Shown here piece by piece: positions 2,600-29,591 of a stretch of DNA of 64,000 nt (position 1 is the stretch's first letter; the number at the start of each line of letters is the position of its first letter). The notes under the pieces are model-generated. The model ran no database searches, was not told the DNA's origin, and saw only the letters and a program-made list of their open reading frames with translations. Origin of the DNA: Physcomitrium patens (taxonomy: Eukaryota > Streptophyta > Bryopsida > Funariales > Funariaceae); NCBI RefSeq assembly GCF_000002425.4, contig NC_037271.1, forward strand, positions 7,367,800 through 7,431,799, read 5' to 3'. Position numbers and translations under genes: made by a program.

Positions 2600-2901
2600 T
2601 GTACAAATAAATTTATTTTTTAAAGCAAAAAATAATACTTTTATTTCTTTATTCTACTCAAGTTTATCTTTACAAGTCAAACATGTAAGTGGAGCTATAA
2701 CTTGAGAAAATTTCTTGATAGAGATTTCATAATAATTAAAAAAGTCCAAAAAGTATTATACATCTGTTATTATTCTTGAGATCTTCTAATCTATGATAGT
2801 TTGGACCTTGTTTAGATCCATCATAAGAACTTCATTGTAAATGATGTATCTCAAAAAGTCAACTTAAGTAGTATAAAATATACATTTTTTTATCTTCACG
2901 T
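2600..2901 (-). pseudogene. E1 RT connection / start of RNase H remnant
   Basis: Minus-strand translation gives 'KVDFLRYIIYNEVLMMDLNK' and then 'VQTIIDWKISRIITDV', followed by 'KKFSQVIAPLTCLTCKDKLE'. This is the usual gypsy segment after the RT palm (FLGY...DPxKVxxIxxW...PLTxLTxK). The rest of RNase H seems deleted, because integrase follows after about 50 bases. The upstream half of RT lies beyond solo LTR B1 at 4155 and up; the two join in register at the LTR insertion point. Confidence 0.8.
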
Positions 2902-4154
2902 TGTGATACTATAAAACCTTACAGTATGAAAAAATTAATTAAAATATATTATATGTTAATAAATCTAGATGTATGTTAGAATGATTAATAGATTAATTTA
3001 AAGAGAGTAGATTTAAGAAATTTTATTTTGAGTTTTATCTTTTTTGATTATAGCATTTAAAACAATCGTAAGATCTAAATATTTAATATAAAGCCTTGAG
3101 AGGAGATTAGAGCCTAAAGAAGAAAATCTTAACTAATAAGAGGCTTATTAGAAAGGATGAAAGTAAGGCATGGTTGGATGAAGGCAAAGAATGAGAAACT
3201 TCATTCCTATTGATCAAAGGCCATGTCCAATGGGCTTCAAGGAGGCTGCCTGAGGTCTTATTAGGGATTAGGATTTTATTTTTAAAGGCATTTGAGCTTT
3301 GGAGGCTAAGGCCAGTAAGTTAAGGATTTTGAGTATAATTTGAGTAAAGATTTTGGGTGATTTCGAGTTTTTGTGAAAGAGATATAGGTCTTCAAAGTTA
3401 AGGTGTCAAATTTGTACCTAATATCATTCTTTGCAGCATAACATATGCGTATAGAAAGCAATAAAAGATCAATGACTAGAGTTGGAGAGAACACTTTCTT
3501 GGATACACTTTATATATAGTTTTTGATGAATTCCAAGTCTACATGAAGGAGTTATGGGGCATTGAAGACAGCATATGTAATTCAAAGGTAGTAAAAGAGT
3601 CATTTTATTGATAGAAATGCTTAGAGAAATATCTTGAGTTTTTAGACGAATTTTTATTTCAAAATTTCCATAAGTGTAAGTTATTAAGTTAAAAATCTAT
3701 AGATCAAAGTTTCATGGTATTTAAATACTTATTTTGTGAGATATGAAGAAATTAGCATGTAAGTATATGTAAGCTAGGGTTTTAAGCTACTATTAGGGCT
3801 TTAGTGATATCTCAAGATCCATAATGAATTTGCAATTGAATTTTTTTTTGGTAGTTTTTGAAAGTATATCAGTACTCTACTTAAAATTTATGATTGTTTA
3901 GACAATCCGATCATGAGATATGAACTATTGAAGTTTGGGAAACATTTCTCATAAGGACATATAAGGTTTTAAGATACTTTATCATATATTTGGGTGTTTT
4001 TTTGGTACTTGGGCTTATGTATTGATTTAATTGTCCTAAAAAAGAATATATTGTATATATAAACTTGGTACTTTTATATCTTAGACTTGCTTGAGCATTT
4101 AATAGTAGCCACAAGCCCAACACTTTCTTGAGGCAAACTCTCTCTACCTCAATA
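2902..4154 (+). repeat. Solo LTR B1
   Basis: This copy of LTR family B is homologous to 8917-10233, 31925-33177 (both opposite orientation) and 48779-50032. The ends are a decayed TGTC...GACA type (TGTGATA at 2902; CCTCAATA at 4147-4154). No internal region is present. It sits inside the RT of E1, between the segments reading 'HILQKLRDVRLYII' and 'KVDFLRYIIY', which are contiguous in intact gypsy RTs. A solo LTR is the usual product of LTR-LTR recombination. Confidence 0.75.
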
Positions 4155-4990
4155 ATGTATAATCTTACATCTCTTAGTTTTTGTAATATATGAAAAATAT
4201 GAACTACATGCTCTTTTGTATTCTTATAATAGATTAAAATATTTTTCAAATAACAAATGACAAAACCATGAAGAAACTCACAAAGGACATCATTTATTAG
4301 ATATTGGAAAGCAATTGGTATATTTGTAAATCCAAAAGACAGGATATTATATTCAAAATATCCATATCTAGTTCAAAAAGAAATCTTCTATTTATTTCCT
4401 TTTTTGATGTAGATTAGATTATATGCTCCTCATAGATCTATTTTTGTATAGATTTTTGCTTGATTTAGTTGATCAAAAAGTCTTCAAATCAAAGATAGAG
4501 GATACTTGTTTTTGATGGTGATCTTGTTAAGTCCTCAATAATCTATACACATTTATAGAGATTTATCTTTTATCTTCACAAATAAGATAAAAGCCTTGAC
4601 TAAAGATTTAGAATGGCATCTAAAATTCTTAGCCAAGTTCTCATCAATATATTCTTTGAGTGCAGCCAACCTATTTTGTGATAGGCTATAAATTGGTCCA
4701 AATGGTGGTTAAGTTCCTTCTTGAAGATTGATGGTACAATCATAAGGACGATGCTTCGAAAGAATATTTATATTTTTTTTTTCAAAAACATCTTGAAAAT
4801 CTTGATATTGACTAAGAATATCACTTATAATCTTTTCATCATCAACAATGGGCATGGTGTATCTAGCAAAAGATGATCCGTCATTTGCAGCATGCATGAA
4901 AGCTTTTGCATCTACTAATATGGGTTTGGATATACTAGACATATAGATTTCTACTCACTTATTAGAACCTTGTGCTAAACTATAAAAAAA
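4155..4990 (-). pseudogene. E1 reverse transcriptase remnant
   Basis: An open stretch at 4709-4942 (minus) covers the protease-RT linker and RT start: 'YQDFQDVFEKKNINILSKHR' followed by 'PYDCTINLQEGT', the typical PYD-x-xI-L-x-GT entry into gypsy RT. Downstream the palm is broken by stops. At about 4220-4240 the catalytic YLDD box reads Y-L-K-N, with both catalytic aspartates replaced, as expected from G-to-A change. Reading then runs into solo LTR B1 after 'RLYII'. Non-functional. Confidence 0.8.
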
Positions 4991-5399: not shown

Positions 5400-6440
5400 C
5401 TTATTGTAGCTAAAGCAATTCATTTTCTAACACATTCTCTTCTTTGACGATCAAGCTTCTCATTTTGTCATTGCATTATTTCTTTGGACAATGTTGAGTA
5501 GTATATTTAACTTCTGCACAATATAAGCATAAGTCGTCTTGACATTGTTGACTCTTTTCTTGCTTTGTGAGAAGTTTAAAACATACCATATCAATTTGTA
5601 TTGGTTCTAGCTTTGATAAATAAGTTTCTAAAAACTTAGAAATTATCTTCATTATTTGGTTTATTCTTCTTCAACCATATCTTTGTTCTCGATGTCTTTC
5701 AGATAATCAATTTTTATATGCAATGGCTTGAGTAATAAATTGTTCTAAAGATTACATCTTTAGCATTGTCAGTAACAAGTCTTTGTCTTTATCCTTCAAT
5801 CTATATCAAAATTGATTCATAAAGATTTTGTCATTCCAGTCCAAGTTGCAAGTGAGGTTTTGGAATTCAATAGCATATATAGAGGTTGACCATGATCCTT
5901 ACCGTAAAGATAAGAACTTTATCTTTGCTACTATTTTTCAATCACTTTCTTTAAATGTGGCTATAAATACTTTTAGGAATGAATTCAAATCATAAAGGAG
6001 TTACAAATCTTTTTCTATTAAAGGTACAAATTAAGAGAGAGTACTTCTTGATGGAATTACTCTTATAGATCTGACTTAAATAAATCCATCGGAGTATTGG
6101 AAAGGGTGCAACCTTAGAAAAAGCTTGACTTATTGCAAAAATCCTTGAAATTTTGATCTTGTCCCATCAAACTTTTCAAGCATATTAATCCTTATCCTTG
6201 TCAAACTTATAGAAGCAAAATTCCTTAGATTTGGTTGTGAGGTCAATCTACTTGCTTCTTTCAACTACATAACTTCTTATTGTAGACTCTAAACTTCTTC
6301 TATAGGCATAGGCATAGTACTTCCATAATTTAGGTTAGAAATATGTAAAATTTCTACTCTTAGAGTATTGACAAGCTCATGAAGATTTACAACAGTTGCA
6401 AATCTATTCTCACTTCTACTAGAAGTAGCATCCGTAATCT
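5400..6440 (-). pseudogene. E1 gag remnant with zinc knuckle
   Basis: Minus-strand reading shows a capsid-like start near 6160-6190 ('MLEKFDGTRSKFQGFL') and 'NLDWNDKIFMNQFWYRLKDK' near 5800-5850, a pattern typical of gypsy Gag. A CCHC zinc knuckle follows near 5490-5530 ('LCLYCAEVKYTTQHCPK'). In a live element Gag forms the particle and binds RNA through the knuckle. Stops and frame changes are numerous. Confidence 0.7.
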
Positions 6441-6450
6441 TTTTTTTTTA

Positions 6451-7149
6451 TAGAAAATTCAAAAAAATCTAAAAAAGTTAAACTAGAAGAAGATAATTTG
6501 CAACCTCTATTAAAAAAATTTACAAAGTGGAAAAATCCACTTTTTTTAATAAATGTTAAAAAATGTTAAAAAATGAAAAAATATATTTGAAAGTAGGTAG
6601 TCTGTAACCTTCAAAATATAACAATAGAAGTGGAATAATCCACTCACATTTAAAATAAGATAAAAATATTATGTTAGTACTCTTATTAAATTATCAAGGA
6701 TATGCATCTCAAAGAAAGAAAATTCTCAATGCAGTCTTATGTCACTAAAGAGAACTAAAAATTCACTCAAAAGGTGATGTAATATTAAACTAGAATTGCT
6801 ATTGCCAAAAAAAAGACTAAAAAGTCTTGAAACTAGACTAAGAACTAGAAATATATTGACAAGAGTGAAGAAGGCTTCATTTTTGCCTCTATATATACTC
6901 TCTAATTAAGAGCTACGTGGCAATATTCTATAGGATCTCGAATATGTATTGACTTTGCTAGCCACATATCTTAACTTGTAATGTAAGTTATTTATATATA
7001 TACTATGTAATTAACTTATTTCAAAAGCTATTATACAGAGTTAACTTGTTCCATAAGCTATTATCACATGCTTAACTTGTTGGCCAAATTTCTAATCTAC
7101 AAATATATCTAAAGTCAAAATCTTGTCTATAAAGTTTTTTTAGAAGACT
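6451..7149. other. AT-rich intergenic stretch, no gene recognised
   Basis: No open frame resembles a known protein. The stretch may hold the leader or 5' LTR of E1, but I find no primer-binding site and no matching second copy in the window. Short A/T tracts are frequent. Confidence 0.4.
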
Positions 7150-7749
7150 TTATGAAATCAATCTATATTTACCTACTTCTACCTAATCATATAAATAACT
7201 ATTGAGATAAATGTATATGTCCATAACAAATGGTGATGGATGTGCTGCTTTAAGGATTATATTCTTTGATGTACCAATTTCCTTATTGAAGATAGATGCA
7301 ATCTTTTTCTACAAGACAAATAGCATCTCTTCTTTTATAGATCACAATCTTATGCATGTATTTGTAAACCATTGCCATAGAGCATCGTAACTTCTACTTC
7401 ATCCACTCTCACTTATTAATGTTGAGTTTAGAAGAAGTACACCTTACTTACACCTCTTAGTGAGATCACCATAAAAGAGTATATCAAAGCTTTTTATCTC
7501 ATCAAATATTTCTTTGAATATATCTACTAGTAATGGAAGAATCAGATATCCTTTGTTAGTTGAAAAAGATAATCTATTAACCTTGTCAATATCCTTATAT
7601 AATTCTTGATCAAGTATTATTACTCTCACATTAATTAATGGTATTTTATAGAATACTCTAAAGACATCATTTAATATTAAAAATAATATAATTTTATTGT
7701 CTATTTCTCTCTTAAATATAGTAACTATCTCATTTAATTCATTTGCCAT
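7150..7749 (-). pseudogene. Uracil-DNA glycosylase (family 1), virus-like, decayed
   Basis: The minus strand starts at ATG 7749 and reads about 200 codons, close to the usual length of family-1 uracil-DNA glycosylases, which remove uracil from DNA. The conserved order is visible. 'VRVIILDQELYKDIDKVNRL' and 'SFSTNKG' sit at the water-activating loop (family: GQDPYH). 'LPLLVDIFKEI' and 'GDLTKRCK' follow, then a stop where Gln-Gly-Val is usual, then 'GVLLLNSTL', 'LWQWFTNTC' and 'AAHPSPF' (the HPSP loop at 7231-7242). About five in-frame stops and the altered catalytic loop make it inactive. Its start codon overlaps that of the plus-strand zinc-ribbon gene. With RPB1 next door, a large-DNA-virus origin is the best inference; a plant or bacterial UDG is the alternative. 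Confidence 0.88.
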
Positions 7750-8062
7750 GGAAACAATGAACTCCTTCTATTTAAAAAGTAATAACAAAGATATAATTAA
7801 GTGGTATGAATTTAATGTCAAATGTATGATTAAAAGAGGTATTAAAGTACCAAGTATTAATTCTTACAAAGATATCAATAATACTATCTTCTTTGATATA
7901 GACTTAAAAGACTCAACAACTCTCATAGAAGAAGGTGTAGAGTGTTGCACTAAATAAAAAAGTAAAAAAATAATATCCATTGATATTTAAAAGAGATTAG
8001 CTGATGAAGAAATGACAACAATGTTTGAGTATTATGAATGCCATAATCAGTGGCAATTATAA
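7748..8062 (+). pseudogene. TFIIS-like transcription elongation factor, C-terminal zinc ribbon
   Basis: From ATG 7748 the frame reads about 105 residues with two in-frame stops. The C-terminal part has 'KRLADEEMTTMF' at the place of the TFIIS signature RSADEPMTTF. It is preceded by 'GVECCTK' and 'KSKKIISIDI' and followed by 'YYECHNQWQL', the second metal-binding half, with one cysteine now Tyr. TFIIS rescues stalled RNA polymerase by stimulating transcript cleavage, and large nucleocytoplasmic DNA viruses encode short versions. It is head-to-head with UDG (ATGs overlap in CATG) and tail-to-tail with the RPB1 remnant, a compact arrangement typical of viral genomes. Missing cysteines and stops show it is dead. 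Confidence 0.78.
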
Positions 8063-8916
8063 AAAAAAAAAATATATATATCTTATTATTATCTGAATTC
8101 TCTTTTATAGCAAAACTATATAATATCTATACCATCTCTTAAAGTACCATCGTATTATGCTATTACATCTTATATAGACTTTGAGATACATCTTTGTATA
8201 TATCCAACATCAGAAGTGTTTCCACCAATATTCAATAGTCCTTCTCTTTTTCTTTGATAGTGAAAGAAGTATTCATTAGGACTAAGCTCTTGTTAATATG
8301 AGCTATTCACAAATCCTTGCTATTGTAAGGAATTATTATATAGACTACACTATGTTAAAGTTCTACTACATGGTAACACTCTTTGTGGTCTTTTTTATGT
8401 TATCCATTATTGACCTACTACTGAAGATATTTATCTTAGATTAACAAAGATTCTTTTAGATCTATTTTTTAAGATTGTAAAGAGTAGATTATTGACTTTA
8501 ATGGATTCTATTAATACTTGTTGGCTTATATTTTTAATATTATTAAGAATAACTTCTAGATCTTTATCATCTATATCTATATTAGCTATAGCAACAGAGC
8601 TAAGCTTGTTAATATATTTATTGTATCATATGCTTAATTCTTCTTCAAGAAGCTAGCGATCAATGATCATCTTTAGTGATCATACAAACTTTAAAGCATA
8701 CTATCCATATATGTTTTTTATCACATTCTTTATTGTATTGGATATGAATAGTTTAATCATCAAATTATTGTCACTGCTTACTATCTAGATAAGTATGAGT
8801 ATGAAATTTCTTAAAGTATGTACATTAACAGTATGAAGATGAATATAAGATGTCATGATACAGTCATATAGTGTTGATCATCTCAATAGCTTATCCATCT
8901 TGTACATCATCAACAC
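8063..8916 (-). pseudogene. RNA polymerase largest subunit (RPB1-like), downstream part
   Basis: Minus-strand translation gives 'VNLR-stop-ISSVVGQ', 'KRPQRVLPCSRTLT', 'QGFVNSSY-stop-QELSPNEYFF' and 'KREGLLNIGGNTSDVGYIQR', then 'YDGTLRDGIDII'. This is the conserved block of RNA polymerase largest subunits around the bridge helix and trigger loop (VGQQ...GKR.P..RTL...GFV..SY..GL.P.EFFFH...GREGL...TGYIQR...YDGT.R). The sequence is closer in pattern to large-DNA-virus RPB1 than to plant RPB1 ('GFVNSSY'); that is my judgement from memory. About a dozen stops are present. The far C-terminus is missing where the TFIIS-like gene ends. Solo LTR B2 separates this piece from the active-site piece at 10234-10505. 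Confidence 0.88.
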
Positions 8917-9008
8917 TATCAGGATAGAGAGAATTTGTCTCAAGAAAGTATTTGGTTCTTCGCTACTACTAATTACTCAATCAAGTCTTGAAATAAAAAA
9001 GACCAAGT

Positions 9009-9045
<37 letters not shown>

Positions 9046-9380
9046 CTTTAAAAAAAATTATACCATATACAAGTCTTAAATTTCCAAAAATATCTAAAAT
9101 ATGATAAAAGGATTTTAAATCCTTATATATCCTTATAGGGTATTATTCTCAAAATTCAACAACTCATATCTTCCAATTGGATCAATCAAACATATTAAAA
9201 TTTTACATGAAGTACTGATGTACTTTTAACAACTATCACAACAAATTTTAACTATAAATTTATTACAGATCTTAAGATATTACCAAAATCCTAATAGTAG
9301 CTTCAAATCCTAGTTTTTATATACCTACGTGCAATTTTCTTCATATCTCACAAATTAAGCATTCAAATGCCATAAAATTT

Positions 9381-9449
<69 letters not shown>

Positions 9450-10233
9450 AATATAATAATCTACTTTTTTCAAAAGATTTGAGCTAAAAATTTGTCCAAA
9501 AAATTAAGATGTGGCTCCAATCATTACTATGAATAAAATCACTTATTTACTCCCTTTGATTTGGATGTGCTGACTTCAACTCTCTATAACTTCTTCATTT
9601 AAATTCCAAATTCATCAAATAATACATGAAAAGTGTAGTCAAGAAAGTGCTCTCCACGCTTAGTTACTGATCCTTTGTTGCTCTTTGTAAACATATGTTA
9701 TGCTCCAAAAAGTGACAATAGATATGAAATTGACATCTTAACTTTGAGTGCCAATAAGTCCATAAAAAATCCAAATCATACAAAATTTACATCCAATCCA
9801 TATCCAAAAACCTAAACTTATTGATACTAGCTCCCAAAGCTTGAATGATCTTAGAAGAGAAATCCTAATTCCTAAAAAGGCCTCGGGCAGCCTCCTTGAA
9901 GTTCATTGAGCATGAAATTTGACCAATAGAGATGGTCTCCATTCCTTGCCTTCATCCAACCATGCCTTACTTTCATCCCTTCCAATAAGCTTCCTATTAG
10001 TTTAGATTTTCATATTTTAGACTCTAATCTCTTCTCAAGGCTTCATACTAAATATTTAGGTCTTATAATTTTTTAAATGCCATAATCAAAATAAATAAAA
10101 TTCAAAATAAATTTTGTTATATTCAATCTCTTTAAATTAATATATTAACCATTCTAATATACATCAAGACTTATAAACATATTATATATTCTAATTAATT
10201 TTTACATACTATAAGCAATTACAATATGACAAT
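8917..10233 (-). repeat. Solo LTR B2 inside the RPB1-like gene
   Basis: This LTR of family B (about 1.3 kb) starts TATCAGGATAGAG and ends CAATATGACA, homologous to 31925-33177 in the same orientation. Two (TA)n tracts (about 9013-9042 and 9383-9447) lie inside. It interrupts the virus-like polymerase gene, so the viral insert is older than this LTR. I cannot see a clear target duplication. Confidence 0.75.
9383..9447. repeat. (TA)n microsatellite
   Basis: About 65 bases of uninterrupted AT alternation within LTR B2. The matching position of B3 (32360-32400) lacks it, so it expanded after insertion. Confidence 0.95.
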
Positions 10234-10505
10234 GGTCTTGTAGTTGTATCTTGTATTGCATATACAATAGGCAATGAATTTTTAGGTGATAAGATGCACT
10301 TATCAAAAACAAGAAGAATGTCACAATTTTCTTTAGATTTATATGATGATGCACAAAATATATTCATCTCATGTCTGTCAAAGTTTGTATTGAATACTAG
10401 ACAAACAGATGGATTGATTCTTATAGTAAAAGAATCACTCATCATCTTCACTTTGAATGCCATAAAGAACATCCTTTTAAGAGATGATTGTCTATTAAGT
10501 AGTAT
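10234..10505 (-). pseudogene. RPB1-like active-site region
   Basis: Minus strand: 'YILLNRQSSLKRMFFMAFKV' and 'TIRINPSVCLVFN', then 'NTNFDRHEMNIF' at about 10361-10396. This is the universal RNA polymerase largest-subunit segment (NRQPTLH...R.NP....YNADFDGDEMN). The metal-binding NADFDGD motif reads N-T-N-F-D-R-H, so two of the three catalytic aspartates are lost. 'SPKNSLPIVYAIQDTTT' follows, the usual P-x-x-G-x-P-x-x-x-x-Q-D segment. It continues, beyond LTR B2, into 8063-8916. The piece immediately upstream in the protein lies on the opposite strand at 10540-10800. Confidence 0.9.
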
Positions 10506-10539
10506 ATATCAGAATTTCATAATGAACTACATATCCATT

Positions 10540-10800
10540 ATTTTTAATTGTATTAAAAAAATTTTAAGACCTAAAAATAATCTAGCAAGATTATATAATT
10601 TAATACTAAGAAATAGTAATAATACTCCTATTATATACAAAGAACACTGTGCAAAAATTAGAGAGGACTCTTTTGAGAAAAATGAAGGATCTTTAATAAA
10701 TAAAATATATGAAAAGGGAGTTAATTTTAGAAAGTGCATTCTTGGTAAAAAATCAAGGATTGTACAAGAGCTATAATAATTCCTTAACCCAATATATATA
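10540..10800 (+). pseudogene. Inverted RPB1-like segment
   Basis: On the plus strand 'ILRPKNNLARLYNLILRN' and 'KNEGSLINKIYEKGVNF' are followed by 'KSRIVQEL'. The spacing EG-(7)-xKxVNF equals the RPB1 block EG-(7)-GKRVDF that precedes the active site in all largest subunits. This block should lie between the N-terminal piece (10830-11329, minus) and the active-site piece (10234-10505, minus), and it does, but in reverse orientation. I infer a small inversion of about 0.3 kb inside the gene. Reading the minus strand here gives no RPB1 similarity. Confidence 0.65.
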
Positions 10801-10829
10801 TTGATGAAATAGATATTCATTTATTTTTT

Positions 10830-11329
10830 TGTAGTAATGTTAAGATACAAAGAGATGATTAGGATTTGACAAGTTGTAGCCCATAAAGCTTACTTGATCA
10901 TTTAATAGAATATTAAATATATCCTTCGTAAAAGAAATTAATATAGTTTAACTTTATTTTTTCTTATTAACAAGACACATCTTCTTTGAATCAAATGTAT
11001 ATACTCTTCTATGATCTTTGTAATTCGAACATACCTTCTTTGTTTTGATCTACTAAGCCAAATAATTTACATCTAAGACATATCATCTCTGCAATTTTTA
11101 TTACCTTCTTTAAATATAATGGATTAAACACTTTTTCTTTAAGTTATATAAATCCCATATGCCTTGGAGAACATTTCGGATCAAAACATATAAAGTAATA
11201 GACCAAAGGTCTTGTTTTTAGAGTAGAAGAACTAATGTTGTTTTTGTTATTAATTTGTATTGAAGATATTTAGATAAACTCATCCAAAGAATAGAATGAG
11301 AAAGAAATCGTCTTAAGCTGACTAGCCAT
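10830..11329 (-). pseudogene. RPB1-like N-terminus
   Basis: The minus strand starts at ATG 11329 ('MASQLKTISFSFYSLDEF'). It continues with 'INNKNNISSSTLKTRPLVYY', 'CSPRHMGFI' and 'LKEKVFNPLYLKKVIKIAEM', then 'ICLRCKLFGLVDQNKEGMFE'. This is the clamp head of RNA polymerase largest subunits (CPGHFGxIxLxxPVxxxxFLxxxxxIxxxxCxxC), with the zinc-binding Cys/His cluster partly retained. Few stops occur in the first 130 codons and more after that. The start is chosen because the family N-terminal pattern (V..I.F...S..EI) begins here. It is the first of four pieces of one gene running 11329 to 8063. Confidence 0.88.
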
Positions 11330-13880
11330 GGTAGTGTTGATAAACACTAATTAAAACATATTATATAAAAAATCACAAAAAAAAAAACTACACATATTGT
11401 GAGCAAATTTTTCTCCATTCACTTAAGTTCAATTTGATTCAATTATAACTTAGATTAAAATTAAATATTAACCAGTGTGGGCATATAAATCATAAATATA
11501 AAAAACAAATAAATAAGAATAAAAAGAAATAAATAACAAAATAATCACAAATAATCCAACTAACACTACAAGTTAAATATATAATTTTTATGATTTCTTA
11601 AATATTATAGTCTAATAAGTTAATTGCTTTTTAAGGTTTACTTGATCAAGCTTAAACTCTGAAAATTATGAATAAAAATAAAATAAAATAAAATTACTTA
11701 GAATTAATCATTGAAAGTTGAGTGAAGAGTTTAAAAAGAACCATAGTAAAAAAAAAAATGAAGATAAAAAGTAAATTTTTTAAACTATAATTAAAAGTAA
11801 AAGGTAAAAATAAAAAGATAAGATTAATTTTTATTTTCTTTTATCTTTTAATGATAAAGATGGATGAAAAGATGAAAACTTATCATTAATTATTGAAATG
11901 ACAAAAAAATTCTTAAAATATTATTAATTAATATTAATTAATGAAAATAAGAACTAATATTGCAGATTAGGTGCTAAAAAAATGTGATTAGAAGATGATT
12001 AGAGAGAAAAAAAATAACCTACCTTCAATATGTCAAATTATAGGCAGCCACCTTTGCCACTCAAAAATTCACCAAAAATTCCTTGAGACTCCAATGCATG
12101 TAAATTTTGGTGTAATTAAGGTTAACTTCAGCATGCTTCTATCTTCTCAAATCTTGTGGCAATTTGATCCAAAATTCTTGAGATATGGTTTTTTCCAAGT
12201 AGAGCCACTTGAGCTGCCTTGGCATCAAATCCCTTCTATTTAAAAATTCACTAAAATTTGGTTAGTAATTCAAAGTTAATAATTCTAATTTTTTTCTAAA
12301 ACTACACTTAGCAAAATTTTTTTTCAAAATAAATTCAATGACAAAAAATAAGTAGGTATAAAGCTACGTTTTTCCAAAGTTAATTATTCTAAACTGCTGA
12401 GATAGTAGATTCATTCTTACTTTAAAAATCATCAAAAAAAATTTATAACTTGAAAGTTAAAGACTCAAATTTTCTAATAAATAAGACTTTAAATTGAATT
12501 CACAATAGTAAGTCTCATTAAAGTTTAGTTAGAGGTTGCTAAGTTACAAATTTTTGAAATTAATGCTCTTATGTTGCTAAAGATAATAGACCCCTTGTCA
12601 CTTAGAAATTTGCCAAAAATCCGTCTAAGCTTCAAATTACTCATGGATTATGTTGTTGAAAAGCTAGTAATTAGAAAAAGATGAGAATTAAATACTACTC
12701 AAAATCATAAAAAATTGAGCGACTGAAAGGAAAACAATATTGAGGTAGTGACAAAGTGGGAGAAAATTCCTTCAATTAAAAGCTTAGAAACAATCTGGTA
12801 CGGCTTTGCCTTACAAAAGGAAGAAGAGAGAGAGAGAGTTCAGCCACCCAAGACCTCTTAACTAGGTGGGAAGAGGCCCAAAGGTGGCAGCCACATCTCC
12901 ACCATCCAAATCAAAAAATGTTTAACCAAGATTAAGAGACTATAATGACTCTAAGCCTTAATCCAATTTTAAGGCTAAAAATGCCTCTAATTCAAAAACT
13001 AACATCTTTTTGGCAAAACTAATACTACCAATATTTCTAAAATAAATTTTTACTCAAAGATTGATTATTCTCAAGTCCAAATACGAATTCTAAATCAGAA
13101 AAATTAATTAATTTATTAATTTAGTTGTAAGTTTCAACTATAATATTAATTTTAATCAATCTACTTTGAAATCAGCAAGGGTCCTTGCCATCAAAGCCAT
13201 CATGATCACTATTCTTCAATTTAAACTCCCTTAAACATAAACTCTTAGCAAATCCAAGATTCAATTGTAATTTGGTCATAAATTAATATACTTATGATTT
13301 CTTTTTTTCTTTTTTTCCAATTTTCAATTCCAAATAGTCTTTAAAATTACTAAGAGAAGAATTCTACTATAAAAAATACCTCACCTCTATCTTCTAAAAA
13401 TTATCATTAATTTAACAATTGGACTTTATATTTTTAATCCATTTAAATTGCAGCATGAAATTTAAACTTAAAAAAATCTTAAAAATTAAATAAAAAGATA
13501 GATCTATTAGACTTGAAGGATTTTTTAACCATAGTCAAATTAAGAATCAGCCTTGGAATTGAAAACTAAGATTGTGGATTAATTCAAGATATAATTTCTA
13601 AGACTTAGAAGAAAAATTCTATTAGAATTCTAATTTTAGTATTAAAAGAGAATTTAGACCAAATTAAAAAAATATAGATCTTCTAAACTTACTATTTTTA
13701 GAATTTTAAATAATCACTCAATCTAATAATTAGAAGTATCTATCTAATTAATAACCTTAAAATACAAATAAAATCATAATAAACTAAAAAAAGCTACTTT
13801 GGATCCATAAATTAAAAATATTAGTATTAAAATTAATAAAAATATATTAAAAATCATAAAAATGATTATAACTAACCATT
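11330..13880. other. 2.5-kb non-coding AT-rich insert, possibly an old LTR
   Basis: I find no frame with similarity to a known protein. The stretch lies between the RPB1-like start codon and the possible thymidine-kinase remnant. A TGTTGATAAACAC start near 11336 and scattered purine tracts (12820-12900) suggest a degraded LTR, but I see no partner copy, target duplication or coding domain in the window. Confidence 0.35.
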
Positions 13881-13934
13881 GGAATTATTAATTGTGCTCA
13901 CACATACATAATTGAAGATAGTTATACGTAATAT

Positions 13935-14240
13935 TTGTTGCTTATAATTATGTTGATAGGTCATACATTTAAAGGACAAAAGATGGTTCTCTCAAGATTT
14001 ATAGAAAGTATTGAATTGGATGCTTGTATTATTAAAAAATATAATACTATAATACTAGATGACATACATTTCATCAAGAACATAATCGTTGATAACTGTA
14101 AGATCTTCAACAATATATCCATGTCATTAATGTAAGTACATTTTTAAAGAATCTATTTCTTATATACATTGCTCTAACCATAGCTTCTAACTAGTATTTA
14201 TGCCTAAGATTTTCAGCTTGAAGCATAATCCTTGCCATCT
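13935..14240 (+). pseudogene. Possible thymidine kinase (type II) remnant
   Basis: The plus strand reads 'IGHTFKGQKMVLSRFIESIE' and then 'YNTIILDDIHFIKNIIVDNC', followed in another frame by 'STFLKNLF' and 'IYIALTIASN'. These resemble, in order, the P-loop (GPMFSGKT), the IDExQFF box and the DGTFxRKPF...L.P.A segment of type II thymidine kinases, with the middle apparently deleted. Large DNA viruses often carry this gene, and the virus-like UDG/TFIIS/RPB1 cluster lies 2.6 kb away. The 3' LTR of E2a abuts it at 14253. The match is weak and could be chance. Confidence 0.35.
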
Positions 14241-14252
14241 CTACAATGGTGC

Positions 14253-15805: not shown

Positions 15806-17134
15806 TATTGTATAGAGTGATTTACAATCTTGAAATATACTAAATACTAAGTTGTAGAAAGTTTAGCTTTGGCTTATATATGATGTCTTAGCTCCCAAAA
15901 ATCCCTTTATTTTGGACAAAAGCTCAAATTATAACAAAATCCTTCAAACCATTTTCTTCTCTCAAAGGATATTTTTACCTTAAACTTTAGAAATTTGCAT
16001 CTCTTGATCCAACCGTTCAATTTTTTTCAAATTTCTATATAATGTAGATTCTATCTTTAAGCTTTATCACAAAAAAATGAACCATTAATGTATTATCGAA
16101 CTTCTAGCATCTTAGAAATCCTAGAAGATGCTCTAAATCTAAATCTACAAGCATCCAAAAACTATTTTCTTCATATCTCAAAAATCCAAAATCCAAATAC
16201 TACAAAACTTATGCAAAAAGTTTATTAATATGATTATATACAATTTTAAAAAATTTGAGCCAAAATCTTATCCAATTTCTCAAGATATAGCTCAAAACAC
16301 AAGAACTAGAAAAATGGGTCACTTACTACCCTTAGATTTAAAGTGCTAATTTCAACTTCTAATATCTCCTTTATTTCCACTTAAAATCCATCAAATAGTA
16401 TGATAAAATTGTAACTAAAAGAATATTTTCTCCAATCCTAATTGCCAATTATTTATTACTTTCTACAAGTGTGTGTTATATCCAAAAGAGTGACAATAGG
16501 TACAAAATCAACACCTTAACTTTGAGCATCTATATTTCTTTCATGTAAATTTCAAATCAAACAGAATTTATATCAAAATCGTAGCCAAAAATCTAAATTT
16601 ATTCAATTTAGCCTCTAAACCTGAAATGGCTTTGAAAAAATAACCCTAATCCCTAATAAGACCTCAAGTAGCATCCTTAAAGTCTATTATGCACGATTTT
16701 TGGCCAATAAAAATGGAGCTTTTATCATCCATTTCCATTCATCTATATGGATACCTTAACTTCTCTTCTTTTGCTACCAAGATCCTTCTCCAATCATTTT
16801 TTTTTATAAGATTTACATAGTATATGGCCTAAATATCAAATAAAAGAACCAAAACAAAACTTCAAGAATCACCAATATCTAACAAGGGTGACTCTAAATG
16901 TTTAAAATTTACTACTAATAAGATCAAATTCAAAAGTCACTATGAAAAGAAAATAAAGTTATATAAATTCTAATAGAAGTTCTATTAAACAACCTCTTTT
17001 TGAGGTAGTAATCTATCCACATCTTATAATCAATAAAAATCTACTAATATGACTTTCACTATGTTATCTAGTAAATTGTATATTAAATATATAGACACCT
17101 TATTTTCACATGGTAGCCGAACCACAACATAACA
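15806..17134 (-). repeat. Solo LTR A2 in E2a integrase
   Basis: About 1.33 kb, starting TATTGTATAG and ending CCACAACATAACA, homologous to LTR A3 (18267-19616) in the same orientation. Comparison with E2b near 48265-48280 shows integrase sequence on both sides. The flanks TTGC and TTGT may be a decayed target duplication. The family box lies near 16470 (TGTGTTATATCCAAAAGAG). Confidence 0.75.
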
Positions 17135-18266
17135 TTGTAGTATGATTATGAGGCGTTTGCAGCAAACATGTAATAAGATACATAGTTACATACTCCCAAT
17201 GTGTTGAAGATAACAAAATTGGCTGCAATAGTCTTAGAGATACTACGTTTTGTGCTTTGTTATATTGACATGACTTGCAAGAGCATATAAAGGCTTGAAC
17301 ATTATGATCCAATCTTCTCCAAAATCATGTCCTTGAGATCCATTCTAGAGTCTTCTTTCATCCGAAATGTCTAAATATTGAGATGTCATGTCTCTCTTAA
17401 GGTATGCATGTCTAGAATTTACTATTGTCAAGTACATAAATTTACTTCTTGAAATAGAAAAAGCTATTATTAAGAGTGTTATCTTGAGTATTATATATTA
17501 TCTATCTTTAGCCAATCGCTAATCATCTTGAAATAAGCATCCTATTACATAGCTTTGTTCTATTCTATCTCTTTGGTTAGATATGAAATGATACTACTAG
17601 TGGTAGCGACTTCTGCCTTGTCTTTTGATTCTTCCTTCAAGTCTGGTCTCCATGATAAATTTTCTGGCACAGTATGTTGTCGGCTTTGCTTGTACTGAAA
17701 ATGAATATCAAAAAACTACAATTATTCTTTTTAGCGATGATGCTACAATTTTATATTTTTTAGATATAAATCATGTAGCAAAGATCAATGGATAGTCCAA
17801 AAAATCACTAGCTTTTCTAATATATAGTATCGCCACACCTTTGTGGCGTGTACAATCACTAATTGCTCTTAATCATGTACAAAGTAATTGCACTCTATCC
17901 TTTTGAGCTGGCGTAATTCATATGCTATAAGTTGAAGGCCCCTATCAAAGTCTTGTTGAAAGATTGCTCTAATAGAAAAGTCAAAAGCATCAATGTCAAG
18001 CTCACAAGAGAGATTAAGATCATATGGTTGCAATATTGAAGTAGTAATGAGTACCTCCTTCATCTTATTAAAGGTGTTTTGCTACTCTAGTTTCTTTTCA
18101 AATGGCACACCCTTCTCCAATAGGTTTATCAATGAGACAATAATGTAAAAAAATTCCCAAACAAAATGGAAATATATCTAGCAAGGAATAAAACAAGTAA
18201 ACTTTAGAAGCATCCTTAAAGGTTTGTCAATCCTCTACTACTTTCATCTTCTCTTGCTCTATATAT
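17135..18266 (-). pseudogene. E2a RNase H and integrase N-terminal part
   Basis: The minus strand at 17869-18063 reads 'ILQPYDLNLSCELDIDAFDF' and 'SIRAIFQQD', the gypsy RNase H start (YEL-x-x-D-A-S). The integrase zinc-binding piece lies at 17106-17312 ('CSCKSCQYNKAQNVVSLRLL'). Stops and frame changes are present. It joins the RT segment at 19617 once solo LTR A3 is removed; 62030-62350 of E2c shows the uninterrupted arrangement. Confidence 0.8.
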
Positions 18267-19616
18267 TATCGTATGGCATGATTTACTATCTCGAAATACA
18301 CTAGATATTTAGTTATAGAGAGTGTAGCTTAAACCTTTATATAAATCTTTTCTTAGCTTCCAAAACTCCTTTATTTTGCATAAAACTCAAAATATAACAA
18401 AATCCCTTCAAAACATATTTTTCCCACAAAGGGTTTTCTTTTTTTGAACTTTAGAAATTTATAACTCTTGATCTAACTATTCAGTTTGTCTTAAATTTAT
18501 AGGACAAGTAGAATTCACCTTTAAATTTTACCACAAAAAAACCTAACTGCAAATTCACTTCAGATCTTTTAGCATCTAAGAAACCCTATCAGATGCTCTA
18601 AACCCTAATTTACAAGCACCTGAGCACTATTTTCTTAATATCTCAAGAACTCAATACTCAAATATTATCAAATTTATGTATAAAGTTTACTAACATGAAT
18701 GTACACATTTTGTGAGATTTTGAGCCAAAACCTTATTAAATTGCTTAAGATATAGCTCAAGACACAACCACTAGTAAATCGGGTCACTAACTACCCTTAG
18801 ATTGCATGGGCTGACTTCAAAATCCAATAACTCCTTCATCCCAACTTAGAATCCAGCAAGAAATATGTGAAGAGTGTAGCTGCAAAATTTTTCTCTGTAT
18901 TTGCAATCATCGACTTTCAATTTCTATCCGTACGCGTGCGTTATACTAAAAAGAGTGACAGTAGCTTCCAAATCAACACCTTAACTTTGAGTGCCTATAT
19001 CTCCTTCATATATACTCCAAATCATTCAAGATTTATACCAAAATCATAGCCAAAAATCTAAACTTGCTGACTCTAGCCTTCAAACCTCAAATGGTTTCGG
19101 AAAATTAAACCTAATCTCTAATATGGCCTCGGGCAGCCTCCTCAAAGCCCATTGGTCATGATTTTTGACCAATAGGAATGGAGATTTTCATCATTCATCT
19201 CCATTCATCTATATTGGTGCCCTAATTATTTCCTTTGCTACCAAAGTCCTTCTTCAATTCTTTTTCTTATAAGATTTATATAATTTATGCTCTAAACACC
19301 AAATAAAAGAACCAAAATAAGTTTTCAAAAGTCACCAATGTCTAACAAAGGTGACTTTAAATATTTAGAAGTTACTATCAACCAAAACCAATCTTAAAAG
19401 CCACTATCAAAAGAAAATTAAAGTTATACAAATTCTATAGTAATCTTTTTAAACAACCTCTTCTCAAGGTAATAATCAAATTATATATTACAACCAATTA
19501 AAATTTTACAACCAACTAAAATCTACTAACATAGCTCTTGCCATGTCACTTAATAAATTATATATTAAGTACATAATTATTTTAATTTCATATAGCAGTC
19601 GAACCACAACACGACA
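18267..19616 (-). repeat. Solo LTR A3 (left arm of inverted pair)
   Basis: 1350 bases, exact partner of 20361-21710 in reverse complement with no net indel: position x pairs with 39977 minus x throughout. The ends are TATCGTATGG and CACAACACGACA. The central part (about 18355-19595) is almost identical to the partner; the outer ends are clearly diverged. A matching 60-codon open stretch occurs in both arms and has no protein similarity. It inserted in E2a between RT and RNase H. Confidence 0.88.
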
Positions 19617-20360: not shown

Positions 20361-21710
20361 TGTCCTATTATGGTTTAGCTACTATATGAAATTAAAATAA
20401 TTATGTACTTAATATATAATTTATTAAGTGACATGGCAAGAGCTATGTTAGTAGATTTTAGTTGGTTGTAAAATTTTAATTGGTTGTAATATATAATTTG
20501 ATTATTACCTTGAGAAGAGGTTGTTTAAAAAGATTACTATAGAATTTGTATAACTTTAATTTTCTTTTGATAGTGGCTTTTAAGATTGGTTTTGGTTGAT
20601 AGTAACTTCTAAATATTTAAAGTCACCTTTGTTAGACATTGGTGACTTTTGAAAACTTATTTTGGTTCTTTTATTTAGTGTTTAGAGCATAAATTATATA
20701 AATCTTATAAGAAAAAGAATTGAAGAAGGACTTTGGTAGCAAAGGAAATAATTAGGGCACCAATATAGATGAATGGAGATGAATGATGAAAATCTCCATT
20801 CCTATTGGTCAAAAATCATGACCAATGGGCTTTGAGGAGGCTGCCCGAGGCCATATTAGAGATTAGGTTTAATTTTCCGAAGCCATTTGAGATTTGAAGG
20901 CTAGAGTCAGCAAGTTTAGATTTTTGGCTATGATTTTGGTATAAATCTTGAATGATTTGGAGTATATATGAAGGAGATATAGGCACTCAAAGTTAAGGTG
21001 TTGATTTGGAAGCTACTGTCACTCTTTTTAGTATAACGCACGCGTATGGATAGAAATTGAAAGTCGATGATTGCAAATACAGAGAAAAATTTTGCAGCTA
21101 CACTCTTCACATATTTCTTGCTGGATTCTAAGTTGGGATGAAGGAGTTATTGGATTTTGAAGTCAGCCCATGCAATCTAAGGGTAGTTAGTGACCCGATT
21201 TACTAGTGGTTGTGTCTTGAGCTATATCTTAAGCAATTTAATAAGGTTTTGGCTCAAAATCTCACAAAATGTGTACATTCATGTTAGTAAACTTTATACA
21301 TAAATTTGATAATATTTGAGTATTGAGTTCTTGAGATATTAAGAAAATAGTGCTAAGGTGCTTGTAAATTAGGGTTTAGAGCATCTGATAGGGTTTCTTA
21401 GATGCTAAAAGATCTGAAGTGAATTTGCAGTTAGGTTTTTTTGTGGTAAAATTTAAAGGTGAATTCTACCTGTCCTATAAATTTAAGACAAATTGAATAA
21501 TTAGATCAAGAGTTATGAATTTCTAAAGTTCAAAAAAAGAAAACCCTTTGTGGGAAAAATATGTTTTGAAGGGATTTTGTTATATTTTGAGTTTTATGCA
21601 AAATAAAGGAGTTTTGGAAGCTAAGATAAGATTTATATAAATATTTAAGCTTCACTCTCTATAGCTAGATATCTAGTATATTCTGAGATAGGAAATCACG
21701 CCATATGACA
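20361..21710 (+). repeat. Solo LTR A4 (right arm of inverted pair)
   Basis: 1350 bases, read on plus as TGTCCTATTATGG...CGCCATATGACA. It is the inverted partner of A3. It inserted in E2a in the linker between protease and RT; E2b near 48715 shows the uninterrupted linker. The family box lies at about 21015-21055. Confidence 0.88.
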
Positions 21711-22237: not shown

Positions 22238-23609
22238 GTGATGTTGTAACACGAGTATATAGTGAAAATAAAAAGAAAGGGGAATTTTATTAATATTCAG
22301 TTACCTCGAATATTGAGAGCATTGACCAACTCCAGTACAAATACTGAGTGGTCAGGTTCAGTCACTCCGTTACAGTCAGCCTGGGCATACTGAAATGCTC
22401 CATTCGATTCCAATAACGGGAGTCAGCATGAAGAGAAGGACCAATTCACACGACAGGTTCGAGGAGCCAATTGGATCCAATTTCGATAATCCAATCCGGA
22501 TCCTCTTATCCAATATGAGACCTGAATTGGCCGGTCAACCCAATGCAGTCTAATTACGAGAAATCCAGGTCTTACTACGGGTCTTAGCCAATCCGACGCG
22601 AGGACCAATTTGACCCAATTAACGGAACATCCAGGTTACTACGGGCATCTTTCCCAATCTAGGATCTAAATTGGTCGGGCGAGTCAATGTGGTCCCGATT
22701 ATGGGGTTCGATTCTGTTTCAGGCTGTCTTGTTCTCTGTGCCGTTTCAGGGAACGTTGTTTTCGGTAAATAGATTTCTTAAAGGTAACAACGGAGGAGAA
22801 AGCTCTGACGACGAGAGCCATTTTTGGATCCAAGCTTGACGGCAAGAGCCAATTTCGGATCTAAGCTTGAGGCGGGAGCCAATTTCGGATCTAAGACGGA
22901 AGATTGAAGAAATTCAGAGGATAAGGTTAGGGGGGATATAGTTTTGAAAGGGGGAGGTTTTTTTTCGGGGGGAATCGGGGGGGGGGGGGGAGCTAGTTTT
23001 CAAGCTTTTGCAAGGTTACAAGTTCGGTTTCATTGGAGGTTTTTAAAGATCAAGGAAATTAGAGAGAAGAGCTTCATGCTTCGGGTCGGGGAAGGAAAGA
23101 CATAGAATTTGGATTTTTCTTCTTCATAGAGTTTTGGGAAGACTGAGGCAATCACTGCTGAAGTCAGTGTTGTAATGGTGAATCGGGATTTTTAAATGAA
23201 GTAGGTTTGAATACTCTTGACTGTTTTGTAAAATCGAGTTACGTCTGTGATTGAAGGATTAAAGGGGTGTCTATAGGATTGAGTATGCGGAGTGAATGAA
23301 ATTTATTGGGTTAATCTAACAAGACAGTCAATGGATACAAGATCGTAAGTACAAAGGGGTATTGAAGATTAACAGTTTGGGTTGTTCGGGGTTCTTTGTA
23401 ACGTCTAGAGACCTATCGGCTGGGGCAAAAAAAAAGACTTCGACAAGCAGTCGAAGAGCATCCATATAGATTTACGGTACATTGTTGCAGTCGTTTATAT
23501 TCCAGCAGTCAAAAACTGATAGACTGCTTGACTATCGGCGAATCTCCATACTACCTTCTACAGCCAGACGCCCGGTGCATTCTCGAGCAGGAAAGCATGT
23601 AATACGACA
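22237..23609 (+). repeat. Inner element 5' LTR
   Basis: Begins TGTGATGTTGTAACACGAG (3' LTR copy: TGTCGTGTTGTAACACGAG) and ends GTAATACGACA. It contains a roughly 30-base unit repeated about three times (22800-22895; core GAGCCAATTTCGGATC) and a G-rich tract at 22929-22992 with several G runs, the longest of about 16. Transcription in such elements starts within the LTR; I cannot point to a convincing TATA box. Confidence 0.93.
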
Positions 23610-23613
23610 TAAG

Positions 23614-23631
23614 TGGTGAACCCGACGTGAA
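23614..23631 (+). other. Inner element primer-binding site
   Basis: TGGTGAACCCGACGTGAA starts 4 bases after LTR1. The TGG start is the complement of a tRNA CCA end. It is not the initiator-Met site (TGGTATCAGAGC) seen in the E2 elements. I did not assign the tRNA. Confidence 0.8.
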
Positions 23632-23680
23632 AGCTTGAGGTGGAAGGTATTGGATTTCAATTGATTTTATCTTTATTTTT

Positions 23681-26053
23681 ATGGAAAACGAAAATAAAAA
23701 TTTTAAAGGATTTTTGGAAGAAGTTTCAGGTGGGGAGTCTTCTAAAGGACAAGGTATGCACATAGATCCGTCTATTGCTAGTTTGTTTCAAGCCTTCTCA
23801 TTGTCAATGCAACAATAGCAAAGCAATGATCGGAAGGAAGCTTTGGCAACCAAAGCATTGCAAGCAGTGGTCAATAAAATTGATCAATTTTATGGGAGGA
23901 ATATTTCAAGGTATTTAAGATGTTATGTTCGTGAAATGGAATTAAATCGGGTTTTTGAGAAGAAAATGGTTGCACTATTTGGACTTGCCACAATACCGGA
24001 GATAAGGGACCACATTACATCGATTACGGATCGTTGTGGGAATTCATGGGAGGATATTTCACATGCATTGAAAGACGAATATTTCTTTGAAGATGCTTAT
24101 CGCGTTACTAAGAAGCTGTTTCTAGGATGGATTGAATGGCCCAATAAGAATTTGCAAGCAACAGAGCTACTAAGGGAATTTGAGAGGCAGTACTCTCAAT
24201 TATCGAAGGTAGAAAAATTGACATTGGAGCCGAACAAAGTTGATCTATTTCTTCAAGCTGCTGATGGAGAATTGCAAGAGAAATTAGAACCCCTTCTTGA
24301 AGACAAAGAAGAAGATGAAGGATTGACAACGAAGTGGAAGAACGTTGAAGATGTAGTGGAGTTGCTTACAAAAAAAGAAAGGAAGAAGGATAGGAGCAAT
24401 ATTCCGAAAACAGTACAAGCACCCAAAGCTCCAGTACGTACAACACCACCGACAATGCCTATAGTTCAACCTTCGACATCCTTGTCAAAGAAAGCAGATA
24501 TGGATATGGAAGAAATTATACAAGGAATGCGAGATCTTCAAATCAAATTGGCAAGACTTCAAGAGAATACTTCTATAAACAATTCGAAGAATGTTTCAAA
24601 ACAAGGATATGTACAAAGATGCATTTGGTGTGATGATGCTTCACACACTAGAAAAGATTGCAATGAATTTAATAATATGATACGGCAGGGAATTATTTGC
24701 TGGAAAGATGGGAAGATAGCATTGAAAGATAGGGAGGATCTTCTTCAAACCAATTTTGACAAGGGAGGAATAAGAGCATTGGTTCAAGATTACTTAAAAG
24801 GGCATGAAACAGTAGCACGAGAAAGTGCAAGTTATGGTGCTAGAGTAGATGATGAAATTAGTGGAAGTACGGAAACTAGTGAGTTTTGGGCTTCTGCCAT
24901 TTCTACAATGCAAGAAGGGAAATTACCTCGAGAAGCGTTATTGAGAACTGCAGCTATAATATGAGGAAGAACAGGTTGGGAGGATCCTGTTGAGTCTCTT
25001 TCAGTTCATGCATATATAGCTAAGAGCCAACATCAAGCTTTGATGGAAGAAAAAAGACGAGGAAATTTTGATGATACTAGAGAAGAAAATTCTTTTAAGA
25101 GACAAACTCGAGGAGACAAGGCTCGGGAGGCAGCTTCACAAGAATTGCCTGTAAAGGATACCTCAGCATCATTGGGAGAAAAAACAACGGAGACAAAAGA
25201 TAAGGGCAAATCAATTGCTTATAAGCTACTTTCTGACATTGAAGCGGCAACAAATTTGAAAGGGGTGTTGGAAGAACGTATATTAAATGCTAAGGTGGAA
25301 TTCACATTGAAAGAAGTCTTGGGAATTGCAAAGAAGGAGTTTCATGATGTTATCATTATTAGCATTAAGCGAAAGAGGCAATTAATGAGCGAAACTGGAA
25401 TGAGTCATGCTATTGATGCAAGAATATGTAGAGATGAAGAAGAGGTTGATATTGGTTACAAGCAACCAACAAATGAAAAGAATGGGTATAATCAGCGAGT
25501 AAGTTTCGAAGATTCTAGTGACAAGGAAATGGAAACTTTGAGCCATTATACTCGAAAGCATTGGGCAAGGGCAACTACTGAGGTATTGGTGAAGGTAGGA
25601 GATATAGAAGAACCAATAGTTGCCTTGGTGGACCATGGTTCTGAAATAAATCTCATGTCTAAAGATCTTTATAAGAAGCAAAAATGGCCAATTGATATGG
25701 AACATGGATGGGCAATACGAGCAGCTAATAACACATGAGGCGAATTATATGGACCTTGTCCAGATGTCAAAATTCGGATTGGGGATGTTGCTACGGAGCA
25801 ACATTTCTTCGTTCAAGATACAACATCTTATCCGTTGATTTTAGGACAACCTTATATCACGACAACATGGATGGAAACAAAGGTACTTGACGATGGTTCT
25901 GCTTATGCAAGGGTACGGAGCGAAGATGGGAGGAAAGCTGTACAATTTGTAACAGTACCTCCTAACCATGAACGGAATCGAGATAGGTTGAGGGAGAAAC
26001 CATTGCCAAAGATTGTTGAAGGATTTAAGGATTTTGGGGAGGTACCACTGTAA
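23681..26053 (+). pseudogene. Inner element gag-protease frame
   Basis: The frame opens at ATG 23681 (MENENKNFKG...), is interrupted by TAG 23816, runs open 23843-24961, then TGA 24962, open to TGA 25736, and ends TAA 26051. Gag has a helical capsid-like region, a charged linker and one CCHC zinc knuckle (C-x2-C-x4-H-x4-C, 'RCIWCDDASHTRKDC', about residues 260-273 of the 23843 stretch). The protease part near 25590-25900 has 'VALVDHGSEINLMS' (retropepsin D-S/T-G-S with His in place of Ser/Thr) and 'LILGQPY'. Gag packages RNA and protease cuts the polyprotein. Stops 24962 and 25736 fit CGA to TGA. Pol continues in the -1 frame. Confidence 0.9.
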
Positions 26054-26059
26054 AGCAAG

Positions 26060-29529: not shown

Positions 29530-29580
29530 ATCAAACAGCAATTGGGTAAATTGGTGCATACCGGAGGATGCACAGGTTCA

Positions 29581-29591
29581 GAGGAGGTGGA
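29581..29591 (+). other. Inner element polypurine tract
   Basis: GAGGAGGTGGA lies directly before TGTCGTGTTG of LTR2, the primer for plus-strand DNA in LTR elements. The same GGAGGTGGA ends E4 just before 57300. Confidence 0.8.

What the first reader, a model, noticed from the sequence alone, without database searches (positions are those of the whole stretch)
7150..11329. Giant-virus-like gene cluster (UDG, TFIIS, RPB1) fossilised in plant-like DNA
Three adjacent remnants encode DNA-repair and transcription proteins that large nucleocytoplasmic DNA viruses carry: uracil-DNA glycosylase (VRVIILDQELY, GVLLLN, HPSP), a TFIIS zinc ribbon (KRLADEEMTTMF) and an RNA polymerase largest subunit (CSPRHMGFI, NTNFDRHEMN, GFVNSSY, DVGYIQR). 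They are packed head-to-head and tail-to-tail without introns. This is unlike the surrounding retroelements and points to an endogenised viral genome fragment.
Basis: partly seen in the sequence, partly recalled or inferred. Interest (0 to 1): 0.95.

Follow-up and report, generated by a model that had tools for sequence, protein, structure and literature searches.

The report
Giant-virus-type gene fossil in plant-like DNA
A short stretch of plant-like nuclear DNA holds the decayed remains of three tightly packed genes of the kind that giant DNA viruses carry, which suggests that such a virus once entered the germ line of a spore-bearing plant.

Summary
Three remnants lie at 7222-11330: a family-1 uracil-DNA glycosylase (minus strand), a TFIIS zinc ribbon (plus; weakest match) and an RNA polymerase largest subunit (minus). 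UDG and TFIIS start codons overlap; the TFIIS stop is 44 bp from the last RPB1 match. The UDG has an intact relative (61% identity). Of 66 differences, 45 fit C>T/G>A decay alone (shuffles: mean 14.8, maximum 26), and CpG and CHG are depleted, as expected of long-methylated plant DNA. Best reading: a silenced, decayed fragment of a large DNA virus genome in a non-seed land plant (retroelement kin in liverworts and a fern). The virus family is unresolved: RPB1 scores about equally with giant-virus-type RPB1s and fungal Pol II, the tree cannot place it, and no plant Pol II or UNG could be compared. Packing and lack of introns speak against host pseudogenes without excluding them. Giant-virus insertions are already reported from moss and fern allies, so this is a new member of a known kind.

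The parts
7222..7749 (-). Uracil-DNA glycosylase (family 1) remnant: one frame, four in-frame stops, 25-27 C-terminal residues not found; motif GQDPYH reads DQELYK (intact relative P0241: GQEPYK)
7748..8062 (+). TFIIS-like gene remnant, 104 codons before its stop, two of them in-frame stops, C-terminal zinc ribbon with some cysteines lost; its first ATG overlaps the ATG of UDG, another ATG lies at 7757
8107..8589 (-). RPB1 remnant, profile positions 621-781 of 1403 (domains 4 and 5)
8912..10231 (.). LTR-like dispersed repeat lying between RPB1 blocks 2 and 3; other copies at 31921-33189, 2890-4158 and 48787-50041
   Evidence: no clear target-site duplication
10239..10505 (-). RPB1 remnant, profile positions 388-475 (domain 2, damaged active-site loop)
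11048..11173 (-). RPB1 remnant, profile positions 66-105 (N-terminal zinc region); weak on its own (9.1 bits); a possible start codon is at 11329

Best explanation
A fragment of the genome of a large eukaryotic DNA virus, most likely a nucleocytovirus-type virus, was inserted into the nuclear DNA of a non-seed land plant. It was silenced by cytosine methylation, decayed mainly by C-to-T change, was hit by an LTR-like element, and survives as about 2.8 kb of non-functional sequence holding UDG, TFIIS and the first part of RPB1. In the virus, UDG would have served DNA repair or replication, and RPB1 with TFIIS virus-directed transcription. Shown: homology, order, spacing, interruption, direction of the decay in UDG, damaged motifs. 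Inferred: viral source, methylation, host group, former roles.
For: Homology of all three genes. UDG and TFIIS starts overlap (next TFIIS ATG 7 bp on), and the TFIIS stop is 44 bp from the RPB1 match. Collinear RPB1 blocks whose spacing is shorter than in reference P0139 once the repeat is discounted, so no intron is needed. 45 of 66 UDG differences from P0241 fit C>T/G>A only, against 6 in reverse and a shuffle mean of 14.8 (2,000 shuffles, maximum 26). CpG observed/expected 0.10 and 0.22 and CHG 0.43 and 0.38 in the two parts, against 0.79 and 0.88 in the Gypsy element at 22242-30960. Retroelement kin: of 120 listed hits 17 carry an organism name, 16 of them Riccia, Calypogeia or Adiantum and one bacterial. 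RPB1 and TFIIS are informational genes shared by Nucleocytoviricota and Mirusviricota (PMC10132985, passages). Moss and fern precedents are cited in PMC5294986, PMC12344493 and PMC10640383 (passages).
Against: RPB1 is not clearly closer to giant-virus-type RPB1s than to Pol II. Block 5: 77.9 bits (best of the panel) against 76.2 (S. pombe); block 2: best of the panel 54.5 against 44.4 for the best cellular structure (archaeal) and 40.9 for the best Pol II, but the panel median is only 34.9; the 40-residue piece of block 5: panel best 29.0, yeast Pol I 29.2. Identical plus decay-compatible sites are 74/129 (57%) with S. pombe Pol II and 84/157 (54%) with the panel protein that has most such sites, and the decay excess over shuffles is no weaker for Pol II (23 against 12.9, SD 3.2) than for the panel (25 against 18.1, SD 3.9). 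The tree does not place it. UDG kin in the tree are bacterial. No capsid, DNA polymerase or other viral hallmark gene was found in the parts scanned (partial). In the viral loci fetched (short stretches), no UDG was found by similarity and no TFIIS by a crude motif beside RPB1. The flanks are as CpG-poor as the remnant. The whole genome could not be searched.
Confidence: 0.8

Rival explanations
1. Three host nuclear genes (UNG, TFIIS, a Pol I-V largest subunit) became pseudogenes and lie together by chance or by retroposition.
For: RPB1 block 5 scores nearly as well with S. pombe Pol II as with the best panel protein, 57% of sites are identical or decay-compatible with it, and grouping with fungal Pol II is not rejected (p-AU 0.389).
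Against: Three unrelated genes within tens of bases in opposed orientations. S. pombe and S. cerevisiae Pol II are 107/128 identical in block 5, while the remnant is identical or decay-compatible with S. pombe at 74/129 sites, against 153/174 for UDG and P0241. The chain named Pol IV subunit 1 scores 18.5 bits.
Confidence: 0.09
2. The source was a mirusvirus or another large DNA virus outside Nucleocytoviricota.
For: Mirusviruses carry RNApolA and TFIIS (PMC10132985, passages). The RPB1 remnant is not near any group in the panel. The RPB1 chains recalled as African swine fever virus and vaccinia score 27 and 13.5 bits in block 5.
Against: The held main text of that paper has 0 occurrences of 'uracil'. 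The RPB1 panel was not labelled by virus family, so this was not tested directly.
Confidence: 0.12
3. The window is not plant DNA but an alga, protist or fungus with Gypsy elements; the insertion is real but the host is different.
For: No host gene was identified. Host identity rests on one retroelement protein, best-scoring named matches 71-73% identical. The genome of the fungus Rhizophagus irregularis is similarly AT-rich (27.89% G+C) and holds a giant-virus region (PMC10640383, passages).
Against: 16 of the 17 organism-named hits among the 120 listed are liverworts or a fern. CHG as well as CpG depletion fits plant-type methylation.
Confidence: 0.12
4. Chance open frames that mimic these families.
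For: TFIIS alone is weak, and RPB1 block 1 scores only 9.1 bits.
Against: 40 shuffles gave no listed RPB1 match and at best -2.2 bits for UDG; three RPB1 blocks lie in the right order on one strand.
Confidence: 0.01

Closest known systems
Nucleocytovirus insertions in the moss Physcomitrium (Physcomitrella) patens and a lycophyte/fern ally (Maumus et al. 2014; paper not held, known here through passages of PMC5294986, PMC12344493, PMC11244446 and PMC10640383; that the second host is Selaginella is recalled)
   Same: Large DNA virus genes in non-seed plant nuclear DNA; the moss insertions are reported as methylated
   Different: Here a short fragment with UDG, TFIIS and a truncated RPB1; the host is not identified; no capsid or DNA polymerase gene found in the parts scanned; sequences could not be compared directly
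1.5-Mb asfarvirus-related region in Rhizophagus irregularis (PMC10640383, passages)
   Same: Endogenous giant-virus region with RNA polymerase genes in a very AT-rich genome
   Different: That region is 1.5 Mb, richer in G+C than the rest of its chromosome (36.58% against 28.00%) and asfarvirus-related; here the RPB1 chain recalled as African swine fever virus scores 27 bits and the remnant is as AT-rich as its surroundings
Protein P0241 (202-aa UDG, two public contigs, longest 8,016 bp, origin unnamed)
   Same: 61% identity over 94%; GQEPYK where the window reads DQELYK; 153 of 174 sites identical or decay-compatible
   Different: Open reading frame intact and above curated UDG cut-offs; neighbours and organism unknown

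Membership tests
Endogenous element of Nucleocytoviricota | Homologues of NCLDV-type informational genes | tested here: met
   RPB1 and TFIIS remnants; such genes are not exclusive to this phylum
Endogenous element of Nucleocytoviricota | Genes branch inside Nucleocytoviricota | tested here: inconclusive
   RPB1 tree unresolved, window end branch 4.55, p-AU 0.389 with fungal Pol II
Endogenous element of Nucleocytoviricota | Capsid, B-family DNA polymerase, packaging ATPase or VLTF3 present | tested here: inconclusive
   None found in the pieces of 5700-8911 and 10232-14250 given to Pfam (not all pieces); the rest of the window was not scanned with profiles of these genes and the genome was not searchable
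Endogenous element of Nucleocytoviricota | Compact intronless gene order in host DNA | tested here: met
Family-1 uracil-DNA glycosylase | Family-1 profile match | tested here: met
   Window E=1.2e-29 but under the curated cut-off; intact relative P0241 above the cut-offs of four of the five models listed
Family-1 uracil-DNA glycosylase | Motif GQDPYH | tested here: not met
   Window DQELYK, P0241 GQEPYK; 74 of 85 compared rows have GQDPYH. HPSP is kept in the window
Decayed Pol II RPB1 of the host | Residual divergence explained by decay from a Pol II gene | tested here: inconclusive
   74/129 sites compatible with S. pombe Pol II while two yeasts share 107/128 points against; plant Pol II itself not compared
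Mirusviricota | HK97-type capsid and mirusvirus-type RNApolA | not testable with these tools
   No labelled mirusvirus sequences in the collections used

The most novel reading that the evidence does not exclude
The remnant records an unsampled large-virus lineage of non-seed land plants whose RPB1 gene ended near the archaeal A'/A'' split point (truncated gene abutting TFIIS), with a short, about 104-codon TFIIS and a UDG of bacterial affinity that carries Glu at the position of the usual catalytic Asp.
Probability: 0.15. Interest if true: 0.75.

Novelty: new member of a known kind. Interest (0 to 1): 0.5.

Why it matters
Nucleocytovirus genes are reported from moss and fern genomes although no such virus has been isolated from these plants (PMC10640383 passage). 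Fossils of this kind are therefore main evidence for which plants were infected and by what. An intact relative of the UDG exists in public contigs, so the source lineage can be recovered and placed. The decay pattern also shows what happens to such insertions in methylated DNA.

Tried and rejected
Searching viral contigs with the decayed RPB1 and UDG pieces found no relatives. UDG loci from viral contigs (L019-L021) look phage-like by eye, with no RPB1 or TFIIS found. A TFIIS pattern found one locus (L018) with no convincing match to the window. Seven of the 80 kept MAG loci with the nearest UDGs were looked at and read as ordinary bacterial neighbourhoods; only the UDG matched the window. 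Of 1,160 open frames from 25 viral loci, three matched outside 8000-11400 at E 0.003-0.006 and none is convincing. Among 26 RPB1 frames in 19 viral loci, breaks inside a locus fall near profile positions 293, 430 and 949, not 781; frames ending at 764, 807 and 819 run into the end of the stretch. A clean target-site duplication around the LTR-like repeat was not found. Papers: the listings of eight searches (titles and starts of abstracts) showed no report of a UDG-TFIIS-RPB1 cluster in a plant; Maumus et al. 2014 is not held, so this cannot be excluded.

Odds changed on re-checking: the confidence went from 0.82 to 0.80 and the host-pseudogene rival from 0.07 to 0.09, because one search shows a decay-compatible fraction with S. 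pombe Pol II as high as with the panel.

Corrected error: one pattern had a wrong spacing and found nothing; it was repeated.
Full report
What is there. The minus strand from 7749 to 7222 reads as a family-1 uracil-DNA glycosylase in one frame with four stops. Its first open piece matches solved UDG structures (best E=3.5e-6), and the frame with X at stops matches the NCBIfam models (best E=1.2e-29, under the curated cut-off). Pfam did not report it. On the plus strand 7748-8062 a TFIIS-like frame ends in a damaged zinc ribbon; this is the weakest of the three (Pfam 4.1e-4 for 23 residues, 0.0039 for the fuller frame; NCBIfam 4.2e-4; solved elongation factor SII, E=0.0044). On the minus strand three RPB1 blocks lie in order at 11173-11048, 10505-10239 and 8589-8107 (9.1, 49.0 and 86.2 bits), with Pfam domain 2 at E=1.3e-14 and domain 5 at 7.2e-12. 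In 40 dinucleotide shuffles of the whole window no RPB1 match was listed and the best UDG score was -2.2 bits, against 188.4 in the window. TFIIS was not tested on shuffles.

Arrangement. The sequence CCATGG at 7746-7751 holds start codons of both UDG and TFIIS, on opposite strands; a second TFIIS ATG lies at 7757. The TFIIS stop is at 8060-8062 and the last RPB1 match at 8107. Between RPB1 blocks 2 and 3 lies a 1.32-kb repeat; its matches to the copies at 31921-33189, 2890-4158 and 48787-50041 are 68-80% identical. Reference P0139 has about 161 residues (about 480 bp) between these two blocks; the window has about 350 bp once the repeat is discounted, and the stretch between blocks 1 and 2 is also shorter than in the reference. 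No intron is needed, though deletions are. RPB1 ends at profile position 781 of 1403 and nothing significant beyond it was found in the window. In one search the archaeal Rpo1N and A' chains (880-910 residues) match up to residues 839-868, so they end shortly after the same place; here the end is either a true gene end or a later deletion. Among 26 RPB1 frames in 19 viral loci no internal break falls there.

Decay. The protein search with the UDG frame (64 candidates) gave two hits: P0241, 202 aa, 61% identity over 94%, E=1.7e-54, and P0242, 33%. Over 174 aligned sites 108 are identical. Of the 66 differences, 45 can be reached from a codon of the P0241 residue by C>T or G>A only, 6 by the reverse changes; 2,000 shuffles of the residues gave a mean of 14.8, SD 3.3, maximum 26. 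Two of the four stops fit this alone. CpG observed/expected is 0.10 and 0.22 in the two parts of the remnant and CHG 0.43 and 0.38, against 0.79 and 0.88 in the Gypsy element at 22242-30960, whose end repeats are 96.9% identical. The flanks and the repeat are equally depleted (CpG 0.16-0.21, CHG 0.34-0.50), so this describes the neighbourhood, not only the insertion. That CHG methylation is characteristic of plants is established knowledge, not a call. The active-site loop that reads NADFDGD in the references reads NTNFDRH here, so this RPB1 could not work.

Host. A Gypsy reverse transcriptase at 26629-27588 has 291 relatives, of which 120 were listed. Seventeen listed rows carry an organism name: 16 are Riccia sorocarpa, Riccia fluitans, Calypogeia fissa or Adiantum nelumboides, and one is a Kitasatospora record that is probably contamination. 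The best-scoring named plant matches are 71-73% identical (shorter ones up to 79%), so the host is probably none of these. Non-seed land plant is the best guess and rests on this element plus the CHG signal.

Source. Organism labels of structure entries here (S. pombe, K. phaffii, S. cerevisiae, ASFV, vaccinia) are recalled from the entry codes; the calls give molecule names only. For block 2 the panel of 120 RPB1 proteins scores up to 54.5 bits (median 34.9), the best cellular structure 44.4 (archaeal) and the best Pol II 40.9. Block 5 scores up to 77.9 in the panel and 76.2 with S. pombe Pol II; ASFV scores 27, vaccinia 13.5 and the chain named Pol IV subunit 1 18.5. The panel proteins are mostly unnamed metagenomic sequences; many are labelled by their source as Pol II subunit RPB1, one comes from a record named Legionellales MAG, and the best-scoring group is itself close to Pol II (P0139: 1,029 bits with S. 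pombe). That this group is viral is inferred from its joining a viral contig, L022, in the tree (95/83) and from its contigs. In that tree of 32 rows the window has an end branch of 4.55 and no supported place; holding it with fungal Pol II is not rejected (p-AU 0.389). Decay does not explain the distance to either group: identical plus decay-compatible sites are 74/129 with S. pombe Pol II and 84/157 with the panel protein that has most (60 shuffles per row, excess over shuffles similar for both), against 153/174 for UDG and P0241; two yeasts share 107/128 in this block. The Pol II rows were short stretches taken and covered block 5 only. The UDG tree (85 rows) joins the window and P0241 (100/99) on a long branch near a Bacteroidota UDG with weak support (96/55); it holds no plant and no labelled giant-virus rows. 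A UDG of bacterial affinity would not be odd in a virus that takes up genes, but the source cannot be named.

Judgement. The packing of three informational or repair genes with opposed, nearly touching frames, the lack of introns and the divergence from fungal Pol II make host pseudogenes unlikely, without excluding them. Nucleocytoviricota is the most likely source because insertions of that phylum are known from non-seed plants (PMC5294986, PMC12344493, PMC11244446, PMC10640383, passages only), while Mirusviricota, which also carries RNApolA and TFIIS (PMC10132985, passages), remains open. The original plant paper is not held and the host genome could not be searched, so whether this very locus or host is already reported cannot be said.

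Noticed in passing
22242-30960: A Gypsy-type element with end repeats 96.9% identical and several open frames; relatives of the RT frame carry PF00078 and occur in liverworts and a fern; the other frames were named by eye only.
   Followed up: partly
18269-19616 and 20361-21708: Two 1.35-kb copies in inverted orientation, 97.9% identical, about 745 bp apart, related at 74% to 15806-17135.
   Followed up: no
44317-45630: A tandem array of an 11-bp unit (about 119 copies, consensus ATTTGATTAGG) with strong GC skew.
   Followed up: no
P0034: A Kitasatospora herbaricolor record encodes a protein 88% identical to the plant-type reverse transcriptase over 68% of it; probably contamination of that assembly.
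   Followed up: no
P0241: The intact UDG relative has GQEPYK where 74 of 85 compared rows have GQDPYH, so the usual catalytic Asp is Glu.
   Followed up: partly
L022-L026, L028, L029: Viral RPB1 genes interrupted near the active site (profile position about 430; L026 also near 293) or at 949 (L029), as by introns or inteins.
   Followed up: partly
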